Source of the DNA: an uncultured Ruminococcus sp.
GTDB lineage: Bacteria > Bacillota > Clostridia > Oscillospirales > Ruminococcaceae
Direction: 5' to 3'
DNA length: 64,000 nt
NCBI GenBank assembly: GCA_947627625.1
Contig: CANQWR010000002.1
Coordinates: 186,001 to 250,000, forward strand
Position 1 is the stretch's first letter. The number at the start of each line of letters is the position of its first letter. Below, piece after piece: positions 10,887 to 13,451 of the stretch. The position numbers and the translations under genes are program-made. Under the pieces are notes generated by a model that searched no databases, had not been told where the DNA came from, and was given only the letters and a program-made list of their open reading frames with translations.

Positions 10887-13451
10887 TTAATTTTTGTAAC
10901 TGTCTATATACTCTCTTATCGAATTTTCGGCATTTTCAACCATCATGTGAAATTCATTTGCGGAAACTCTCATTGCACCGTTTCCGAGAATTATCATCTG
11001 TTCGAGTGCATCGGAAGTGGCAACCCTGACACGGTAGTCCTTTGCGAGTTCGTGACTTATGCGTTCGATATAGCTGTCAGCGGTTTCAGCCTCCTGAGTG
11101 TACACGATATTTATATTAAAATATTTTATTATCTCACGTTTCTGTCCCTTGACCCTGTAGGCATCGAACACAAGGATAATATTGCACCCTGCGTAACCCT
11201 GATAATTGCACATCATGTCCATAAGTTTTATTCTTGCGGATTCAAGGTCTTTTTCGGCGAGAGTTTTGAGTTCGTCCCAAGAGAATATAATATTATAGCC
11301 GTCCACAAGGAGATAGTTCCCCTTGTAATCGGGAATTTTGACGGGCTTGCTGTAGTCGGGAGATTTTTTTGTCTTTTGAAAAGCCTTTCTCCTGTCGGTG
11401 TTTATTTTGCCGTAAGTGCGTTCAAAAATCTCCATGAGTTCCTCATCGGAGGTAAATTTTTCAATATATCTCCTGACATTCCGAGATTTTGTCTCTGTGG
11501 ACTCCCGACTGTTATCCGTAAAAGCGGGGAGGTGCATATGTGATTGGACTTCATTCCACTTGACTATATGCCCTGCACCGTGAGAGCAGAAAACCGAATC
11601 CGCACTGTTTTCTGTGTCGGCATCGCAGTCATAGTTAATACTTTTTATAATTTCGTCAGCGTTATGGCACTCTCTGTACCCGCACGGAATAAGTGTCAGC
11701 CTGCCCTTGCCCCTTGAATAATTGATAATATCCTGTTGATAGCCGTTTATCTCCGAGACGGGAGCAGTTCCCGCTATTACGGAAAAATCGCCGTCGGTCT
11801 GTGGGGAGTCAAACTCCGCTGACATATTCTGCAGATCGGAAATAGCACGTCCCACGCATTCGGACGGAATTTCAAGCTGATATTTATAATAGGGTTCGAG
11901 CAGGACAGACTGTGCAGACCTCAGCCCTTGACGGACTGCCCTGTAGGAAGCCTGTCGGAAGTCGCCGCCCTCTGTGTGTTTCAGGTGAGCTTTTCCCGAC
12001 ACGAGAGTTATTTTAACGTCCGTGACGGGCGAACCTGTCAGGACACCGAGGTGAATTTTCTCTTCAAGATTTGACAGAATAAGTCTCTGCCAGTTGCGGT
12101 CGAGGGAGTCCTCACTGCAAATTGTGTCAAAGACTACCCCCGAACCCCTTTCAAGCGGTTCGATAAGGACGTGTACTTCCGCATAGTGCCTGAGGGGTTC
12201 ATAGTGCCCGACACCCTCAACAGTGTTTTTAATAGTCTCCTTATATGCGATTGCACCGTTTCCGAAAGATATGTCAAAGCCGAATCTGGTCTTTACAATC
12301 TGGGATATGACTTCAAGCTGAACCGCTCCCATGAGTTGCAGGCTTATCTGTTTAGTCTGTTCGTCCCATATGATGTGTAGTTGCGGATCTTCATCTTCAA
12401 GAAGTCTCAAATCTTTAAGGGCTTCATAATTATTCACATTTTCGGGCAGAATTGCGTTATAAGTCATAACGGGTTCGAGAACAGCCCTGTCCGAATTTCT
12501 CACACAGCCTATGCCCTGTCCCGCATAGGTGTTTTCGAGACCCGTCACGGCACAGATGTCCCCGACTTCCGCAAATTCGGCATTTTTGAACTTCCCGCCA
12601 AAGCAGAATCTCAGGGAACTTATTTTCTCTGAAATTTCCTCTCCGTTTTTGTCTTTATAATTCAGACTGTCACGGACGGCAAGTCTTCCGCCCATTATTT
12701 TCATGTGGGTAAGACGGTTTCCCCTGTCGTCGTAGGTTATTTTGTAGACCTTTGCACCGAAATCGTCGTAAAGTTTCGGACAGCGTGTGTAGCGGTCGAG
12801 AGCTGAGAGAAGTTTTTCCACACCCTCCATGCGGAGGGCAGACCCGAAAAAGCACGGAAAAATTCTCCTGTCGGCAATGGCGGAGACTATCTCCTCATCG
12901 GACAGAGAGCCTTTTTCTATATAGTTATTCATGAGTTCCTCACAGCAGAGTGCGGAATTTTCCTGAATATCGTCCTCCGAACCCGAAAAATCCACACAGG
13001 CAGATGAGAGATTTTTCTGTAGTCTCTCAATTATGACGGACTTTTCGGGAGTTATCAGGTCTGTTTTGTTCACGAATATAAACACGGGAATTTCGTACTT
13101 TCGGAGGAGATTCCAAAGTGTCACCGTGTGATTTTGCACGCCGTCCGTACCGCTTATAACGAGTATTGCGTAATCGAGAACAGGCATAGTGCGTTCTGCC
13201 TCAGCGGAGAAGTCAACGTGACCGGGGGTGTCAAGGAGAGTTATGTGAGAGTCGCCCCACTCTATCTCCGCACGGCTTGAAAAGACCGTTATACCCCTGT
13301 TTCTCTCTATCTGGTCAGTGTCGAGAAAGGAGTTTCCCGAATCGACTCTGCCGAGTTTTCTTATCTGCCCTGTTGTATACAGGAGTGCTTCGGCAAGGGT
13401 AGTTTTCCCCGAGTCGACATGGGCAGTTATACCTAAAACAAATTTTTTCAT
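10887..13451 (-). CDS. Tet(M)/EF-G-like translational GTPase with C-terminal YacP/Rae1-type NYN (PIN-like) domain
   Basis: N-term GITAHVDSGKTTLAEALL, RNRGITVFSS, DTPGHVDF, NKTD; C-term LLVDGYNIIFSW...ILVFDAYRVKG...ETADSYIERISHEL...VRVATSDALEQMIILG...RVSANEF. Confidence 0.92.
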   Translation of the reverse strand: MKKFVLGITAHVDSGKTTLAEALLYTTGQIRKLGRVDSGNSFLDTDQIERNRGITVFSSRAEIEWGDSHITLLDTPGHVDFSAEAERTMPVLDYAILVISGTDGVQNHTVTLWNLLRKYEIPVFIFVNKTDLITPEKSVIIERLQKNLSSACVDFSGSEDDIQENSALCCEELMNNYIEKGSLSDEEIVSAIADRRIFPCFFGSALRMEGVEKLLSALDRYTRCPKLYDDFGAKVYKITYDDRGNRLTHMKIMGGRLAVRDSLNYKDKNGEEISEKISSLRFCFGGKFKNAEFAEVGDICAVTGLENTYAGQGIGCVRNSDRAVLEPVMTYNAILPENVNNYEALKDLRLLEDEDPQLHIIWDEQTKQISLQLMGAVQLEVISQIVKTRFGFDISFGNGAIAYKETIKNTVEGVGHYEPLRHYAEVHVLIEPLERGSGVVFDTICSEDSLDRNWQRLILSNLEEKIHLGVLTGSPVTDVKITLVSGKAHLKHTEGGDFRQASYRAVRQGLRSAQSVLLEPYYKYQLEIPSECVGRAISDLQNMSAEFDSPQTDGDFSVIAGTAPVSEINGYQQDIINYSRGKGRLTLIPCGYRECHNADEIIKSINYDCDADTENSADSVFCSHGAGHIVKWNEVQSHMHLPAFTDNSRESTETKSRNVRRYIEKFTSDEELMEIFERTYGKINTDRRKAFQKTKKSPDYSKPVKIPDYKGNYLLVDGYNIIFSWDELKTLAEKDLESARIKLMDMMCNYQGYAGCNIILVFDAYRVKGQKREIIKYFNINIVYTQEAETADSYIERISHELAKDYRVRVATSDALEQMIILGNGAMRVSANEFHMMVENAENSIREYIDSYKN

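What the first reader, a model, noticed from the sequence alone, without database searches (positions are those of the whole stretch)
10887..13451. Tet(M)/EF-G-like GTPase fused to a YacP/Rae1-type NYN endoribonuclease domain
One 854-aa ORF: N-terminal translational GTPase (AHVDSGKTT, RGIT, DTPGHVDF, NKTD) and domain II-V homology, a linker containing SVFCSHGAGHIVKWNEVQSHMHLP, then from about aa 690 a complete YacP-like domain (LLVDGYNIIFSW, ILVFDAYRVKG, ETADSYIERI, VRVATSDALEQ). Established knowledge: Tet(M)/EF-G proteins bind the ribosomal A-site region with GTP, and B. subtilis Rae1/YacP is a ribosome-dependent A-site mRNA endonuclease. The fusion suggests a self-targeting factor that docks on stalled ribosomes and cuts the mRNA (rescue or translation quality control). 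I cannot tell how widely it is already described.
Basis: partly seen in the sequence, partly recalled or inferred. Interest (0 to 1): 0.82.

Follow-up and report, generated by a model that had tools for sequence, protein, structure and literature searches.

The report
Ribosome GTPase fused to RNA-cutting nuclease
A gut bacterium carries one protein that joins an EF-G/Tet-like ribosome-binding motor to an RNA-cutting domain known elsewhere as Rae1; the fusion is real, common in Clostridia and was noted in print in 2015, but nobody appears to have tested what it does, and its sequence argues against it being a standard tetracycline-resistance protein.

Summary
An 854-aa ORF (13451..10887, minus strand) carries complete EF-G-type domains I-V (aa 6-597) and a YacP/Rae1-type NYN domain (aa 714-851). 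Its four acidic residues (D717, D763, D792, D814 = Rae1 D7, D53, D81, D104) are invariant in 41 fused and 24 standalone NYN domains. It is the genome's only YacP. The fusion is not new: Atkinson 2015 (PMC4342817) reported clostridial Tet proteins with a YacP-like NYN domain. The family is a clade separate from Tet(M/O/W/BP), ~30% identical to them, and well below NCBI's cut-off for tetracycline protection (421 vs 775 bits). The tetracycline-displacing loop III (YYSPVS) is replaced by a near-invariant HxKHTxGGDFR that keeps EF-G's tip histidine. Genomes carry fused or standalone YacP, almost never both (one exception). The NYN follows a conserved Cys/His segment that is the C-terminus of unfused relatives and lines up with Tet's C-terminal helix. 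The gene is near-core in its genus, with no conserved neighbours and no sign of mobility. Best reading: a ribosome-docking GTPase that delivers Rae1-type cleavage to A-site mRNA on stalled ribosomes. Docking is inferred from homology; cleavage and GTP coupling are untested.

The parts
10887..13451 (-). Whole gene: trGTPase-NYN fusion, 854 aa (stop codon included)
12786..13436 (-). GTP-binding domain I (aa 6-222): P-loop AHVDSGKTT, switch I RGIT, switch II DTPGHVDF with H78, NKTD
   Evidence: K16 and H78 invariant in 71/71 fused and unfused family members
11661..12758 (-). EF-G-type domains II-V (aa 232-597)
11955..11996 (-). Domain IV tip loop III (aa 486-499), GKAHLKHTEGGDFR; aligns with Tet(M) 504-517; H489 aligns with EF-G tip histidine (T. 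thermophilus H573)
11529..11669 (-). Conserved Cys/His C-terminal element (aa 595-641): C595, C622, H624, W632, H640; C-terminus of unfused relatives; aligns with the Tet C-terminal helix; possible metal site
11319..11528 (-). Linker (aa 642-711): long low-confidence helix 645-680 and disordered 680-706
10890..11318 (-). YacP/Rae1-type NYN nuclease domain (aa 712-854), acidic residues D717, D763, D792, D814
13723..13751 (-). Sigma-70-like promoter with extended -10 (TTGACA-17-TATATT)
   Evidence: consensus match only
10848..10879 (-). Terminator-like hairpin just after the stop codon
   Evidence: consensus match only

Best explanation
It is a dedicated ribosome-associated endoribonuclease in which the Rae1/YacP nuclease is permanently joined to its ribosome-docking module. 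The EF-G/Tet-like GTPase binds the factor site of a ribosome whose A site is empty or blocked, as on a paused or stalled ribosome. Domain IV and the C-terminal Cys/His element reach the decoding centre. The NYN domain, tethered there by a long flexible linker, cuts the mRNA in or next to the A site. The cut would create a non-stop complex for tmRNA-type rescue and start decay of the mRNA. GTP hydrolysis would release the factor. Shown: domain content, intact GTPase and nuclease signature residues, near-exclusive occurrence with standalone Rae1, position of the NYN behind the C-terminal element. Inferred: ribosome docking, A-site cleavage, GTP coupling, role in rescue or mRNA decay.
For: Domains I-V and NYN both complete. 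GTPase residues K16 and H78 invariant. NYN acids D717/D763/D792/D814 invariant and aligned with Rae1 D7/D53/D81/D104. Fused and standalone YacP nearly exclusive: among 150 Clostridia genomes with listed YacP ORFs, 79 fused and 66 standalone; of the five genomes with more than one hit only one (G340) had a second full YacP. All 79 fused genomes also match the GTPase part, while 17 of 66 standalone genomes carry a separate match to the GTPase family, a Rosetta-stone pattern. EF-G tip histidine retained as H489 in 70/71. [quoted passage not shown] Rae1 is described as a ribosomal A-site endoribonuclease proposed to enter stalled ribosomes and to precede tmRNA rescue (PMC6613710; PMC12320835; PMC10100781).
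Against: Nothing here shows ribosome binding or cleavage. GTPase-family members occur in 6 genomes without any YacP, so the GTPase has a role of its own. Many genomes have standalone YacP with no such GTPase, so the nuclease does not require it. Exclusivity partly reflects phylogeny (probably one fusion event). The C-terminal part of the YacP profile (after position 140 of 166) is not matched in this protein. Relative placement of NYN and GTPase is not resolved in the model (pTM 0.60).
Confidence: 0.5

Rival explanations
1. It is a tetracycline (or other A-site antibiotic) ribosomal protection protein, and the NYN domain is an accessory that adds RNase activity, as Atkinson 2015 suggested.
For: Sister clade to Tet(M/O/W/BP) with full support; NCBI annotates many members as TetM/TetW/TetO/TetS family; Atkinson proposes a resistance mechanism involving RNase activity (PMC4342817). 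A Tet(M) S508A/P509A/V510A triple mutant can still be active (PMC4750697), so the loop sequence alone does not exclude it.
Against: 421 bits against a curated cut-off of 775. Loop III is HxKHTxGGDFR, not YYSPVSTPADFR, in nearly all 71 members, while Tet(M), Tet(O) and TetB(P) share S-P. About 30% identity to Tet(W), Tet(O) and TetB(P). 34 of 37 genomes of the genus (own genome included) have the YacP. No conserved neighbourhood. Two genomes (G049, G083) carry the fusion and a separate 644-aa Tet-like GTPase.
Confidence: 0.15
2. It is an rRNA or tRNA maturation/quality-control nuclease that uses the GTPase to bind ribosomes or subunits, as once proposed for YacP by Anantharaman and Aravind 2006 (cited in PMC4342817).
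For: The PIN-like superfamily that includes NYN takes part in rRNA maturation (PMC11346440); in B. subtilis rae1 is co-transcribed with the 23S methyltransferase gene yacO and mutants of both suppress efp in the same pathway (PMC6613710).
Against: The characterised orthologue Rae1 cuts mRNA in a translation-dependent way (PMC10100781); domain IV of EF-G-type GTPases reaches the decoding centre of assembled 70S ribosomes (established knowledge).
Confidence: 0.15
3. The GTPase is a translation factor in its own right (a specialised translocase, back-translocase or A-site clearing factor for stalled ribosomes), and the NYN is only carried along, without functional coupling.
For: Unfused orthologues exist, some in genomes without YacP; the L. 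salivarius protein appears to have lost NYN secondarily; EF-G tip histidine H489 retained.
Against: NYN acids stay invariant in all 41 fused domains, and the fusion is kept across much of Clostridia.
Confidence: 0.2

Closest known systems
Clostridial Tet-NYN fusions of Atkinson 2015 (PMC4342817)
   Same: Same architecture: Tet/EF-G-type trGTPase with C-terminal YacP-like NYN in Clostridiales; this protein is most likely a member
   Different: Atkinson treated them as Tet with an extra domain. Here they form, with unfused relatives, a clade apart from Tet(M/O/W/BP) with another loop III and a Cys/His C-terminal element
Rae1/YacP of Bacillus subtilis type (PDB 5mq8, 5mq9)
   Same: NYN domain homologous over 135 residues (2.1e-26), all four acidic residues aligned
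   Different: Rae1 is a free ~170-aa protein; here the nuclease is attached to its own GTPase and the last part of the YacP profile is not matched
Tet(M)/Tet(O)/Tet(W)/TetB(P) ribosomal protection proteins
   Same: Same five-domain layout and C-terminal helix region; sister clade
   Different: ~30% identity, Tet loop III absent, far below curated cut-offs, near-core gene in its genus
EF-G
   Same: Domains I-V; tip histidine of domain IV (T. thermophilus H573) conserved as H489
   Different: This genome has two other EF-G-type genes; this one has a different loop III, a C-terminal Cys/His element and NYN

Membership tests
Tet-NYN fusion (Atkinson 2015) | trGTPase of the Tet/EF-G type with C-terminal YacP-like NYN in one ORF | tested here: met
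   published description
YacP/Rae1 NYN nuclease | Profile match above the Pfam cut-off | tested here: met
   167.9 bits vs 24.6
YacP/Rae1 NYN nuclease | Conserved acidic residues D7, D53, D81, D104 (Rae1 numbering) | tested here: met
   D717, D763, D792, D814; invariant in 41/41 fused
YacP/Rae1 NYN nuclease | Ribosome-dependent A-site mRNA cleavage | not testable with these tools
   needs biochemistry
Tetracycline ribosomal protection protein | Curated family cut-off (NF012153, 775 bits) | tested here: not met
   421 bits; relatives 380-448 bits
Tetracycline ribosomal protection protein | Domain IV loop III of the Tet type (S-P at Tet(M) 508-509) | tested here: not met
   H489-L490-K491 in place of Y507-S508-P509
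Tetracycline ribosomal protection protein | Confers tetracycline resistance | not testable with these tools
   needs MIC assay
Translational GTPase (EF2 family) | P-loop, RGIT, DTPGH, NKxD and domains II-V | tested here: met
Anti-phage defence system | Match to a known defence model | tested here: inconclusive
   Only a weak GTPase-region hit to PADLOC mads_8 (17 bits, E 8e-4); defence neighbours not looked for systematically

The most novel reading that the evidence does not exclude
A GTP-gated ribosome-rescue nuclease: the GTPase recognises a stalled A site and docking or GTP hydrolysis positions and licenses the attached Rae1 nuclease to cut the mRNA. This would make it a self-contained bacterial stalled-ribosome surveillance factor across Clostridia, with the separate GTPase and Rae1 of other Clostridia as its two-protein form.
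Probability: 0.35. Interest if true: 0.75.

Novelty: new member of a known kind. Interest (0 to 1): 0.5.

Why it matters
If the reading is right, a large part of gut Clostridia handles stalled ribosomes with a single GTPase-nuclease instead of the free Rae1 known from B. subtilis, and the fusion suggests what the unfused GTPase does in other Firmicutes. It also means many genes now annotated as TetM/TetW/TetO/TetS-type tetracycline resistance in gut genomes and metagenomes may be mislabelled, which would inflate resistome counts.

Tried and rejected
Frameshift, assembly or chance fusion: rejected, thousands of homologues and the same layout in the best 120. Loss of NYN acids: rejected. Tet(M) membership: cut-off not met. 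TetB(P) membership: 30.6% identity of an unfused family member, separate branch. Phage-borne: two records labelled 'Bacteriophage sp.' carry the fusion, but both are flagged UNVERIFIED and the genes scanned around it are bacterial chromosomal ones (AddAB, FeoB, MraW, Glu-tRNA synthetase in one; metabolic enzymes in the other). Conserved operon: none among 76 named loci. Gene-specific structured leader: the G-rich leader folds better than shuffles (z -3.5) but is a genome-wide repeat (72 matches). Rfam: no hit in the window.

Full report
THE OBSERVATION. The ORF lies at 13451..10887 on the minus strand, starts with ATG and encodes 854 aa. Pfam gives GTP_EFTU at aa 6-222, EF-G_D2 (just under cut-off), EFG_III 326-397, EFG_IV 400-514, EFG_C 516-597 and NYN_YacP 714-851. 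A predicted structure (mean pLDDT 81.9, pTM 0.60) has mostly confident domains I-V (the switch region around aa 50-60 is weak), a C-terminal element to about aa 640, a long low-confidence helix 645-680, a disordered stretch 680-706 and a confident NYN domain; its best PDB matches are EF-G structures.

THE NUCLEASE. The closest solved relatives of the NYN domain are YacP 5mq8/5mq9, matching over 135 residues. D717, D763, D792 and D814 align with Rae1 D7, D53, D81 and D104 and are invariant in 41 fused and 24 standalone domains. The last part of the YacP profile (after position 140 of 166) is not matched in this protein.

THE GTPASE IS NOT A TYPICAL TET PROTEIN. It scores 421 bits against NCBI's tetracycline-protection model, whose cut-off is 775; fused and unfused relatives score 380-448. 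In a tree of 66 GTPases the family is one clade (SH-aLRT 100) and sister to Tet(M), Tet(O), Tet(W) and TetB(P) (quick search, LG+G4, with a long-branch warning at the EF-G outgroup). Identity to Tet(W) and Tet(O) is about 30%, and an unfused family member is 30.6% identical to TetB(P). The domain IV loop that displaces tetracycline reads L505-Y506-Y507-S508-P509-V510 in Tet(M); here it is K487-A488-H489-L490-K491-H492, and HxKHTxGGDFR is nearly invariant in 71 family members. H489 aligns with the EF-G tip histidine, H573 in T. thermophilus. Caution: a Tet(M) S508A/P509A/V510A mutant can still be active (PMC4750697), so the loop argues against tetracycline protection but does not exclude it. 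In at least two genomes the fusion coexists with a separate 644-aa Tet-like GTPase.

THE 'LINKER' IS A CONSERVED ELEMENT. The stretch SVFCxHGxxxxVxWxxVxxxMH is the C-terminus of the unfused relatives and aligns, loosely, with the C-terminal helix of Tet proteins. C595 (71/71), C622 (70/71) and H640 (70/71) are near-invariant, and at least one of H596 or H624 is present in 70 of 71 (Fisher p 0.008 for mutual compensation, not corrected for relatedness). A metal site is plausible but unproven.

DISTRIBUTION. The own genome has one YacP, the fused one. 34 of the 37 genomes of the genus examined (own included) have one YacP, nearly always inside a frame of fusion length. Across 393 Clostridia genomes 252 have YacP; among the 150 genomes whose ORFs were listed, 79 are fused, 66 standalone and 5 have cut-short frames. 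Of five genomes with more than one hit, only one, G340, has a fused and a full standalone copy. All 79 fused genomes match the GTPase query; 17 of 66 standalone genomes carry a separate GTPase-family match; 6 genomes have the GTPase family and no YacP. Named loci with the fusion include Ruminococcus, Lachnospiraceae, Oscillospiraceae, Intestinimonas, Anaerovorax and Fusibacter. The GTPase tree fits one fusion plus one later NYN loss in Ligilactobacillus salivarius, and an AU test does not reject a single origin of the fused NYN (p 0.53).

CONTEXT. The gene lies alone on the minus strand between plus-strand genes, with its own promoter-like and terminator-like sites. No neighbour is conserved among 76 loci. 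The upstream leader holds a repeat found 72 times in the genome and is not evidence of a Tet-style attenuator. Two 'phage' records with the fusion look like bacterial chromosome.

WHAT IS KNOWN. [quoted passage not shown] The architecture is therefore published. I found no experimental study of it in the held library, which lacks the primary Rae1 papers. Later papers describe Rae1 as an A-site endoribonuclease proposed to act on stalled ribosomes and to precede tmRNA rescue.

MECHANISM AND CONFIDENCE. I put 0.5 on a ribosome-docking GTPase that delivers Rae1-type A-site mRNA cleavage, 0.2 on an uncoupled translation factor, 0.15 on antibiotic protection and 0.15 on rRNA/tRNA processing. The strict GTP-gated version is at 0.35. 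Presence of both domains, intact signature residues and the near-exclusive distribution are shown; docking, cleavage and coupling are not.

VERDICT. A real fusion, ordinary in the sense that it is widespread and already noted, but functionally open and directly testable. What this analysis adds is that the GTPase is a separate subfamily with an EF-G-like histidine at the domain IV tip and a Cys/His C-terminal element, that fused and free Rae1 replace each other across Clostridia, and that tetracycline-resistance labels on these genes are doubtful.

Noticed in passing
window 76-62822, e.g. 13523-13562, 28100-28166, 62739-62822: A G-rich palindromic intergenic repeat (core GGGGCRRAGCCCC) occurs 25 times in the window (0.1 expected); a 191-bp query from the gene's leader has 72 matches in the genome.
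   Followed up: partly
L106 5402-7920: In Ligilactobacillus salivarius the unfused GTPase sits on a plasmid, divergent from a ribosomal protein S14 (rpsN) copy and a 'putative metal homeostasis protein', which with the family's Cys/His element hints at a metal (zinc) link.
   Followed up: no
window 18487-21660: Neighbouring kinase-like and von Willebrand A ORFs plus a probable PP2C-like phosphatase ORF (read from sequence only, not scanned) look like a TerY-type phosphorylation triad, next to a BspA-type leucine-rich repeat protein (16510-18270).
   Followed up: partly
window 8894-10807: Ser/Thr kinase-like protein with a PASTA domain and a long Thr/Glu-rich tail next to the fusion gene; neighbour not conserved elsewhere.
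   Followed up: partly
L235, L236 (MT835563.1, MT835514.1): Two UNVERIFIED records deposited as 'Bacteriophage sp.' appear to be bacterial chromosome (AddAB, FeoB, MraW, Glu-tRNA synthetase; metabolic genes).
   Followed up: yes
L051 (G265): A standalone YacP ORF (190 aa) whose sequence groups with fused NYN domains in a genome with an unfused GTPase: a possible fission or swap.
   Followed up: no
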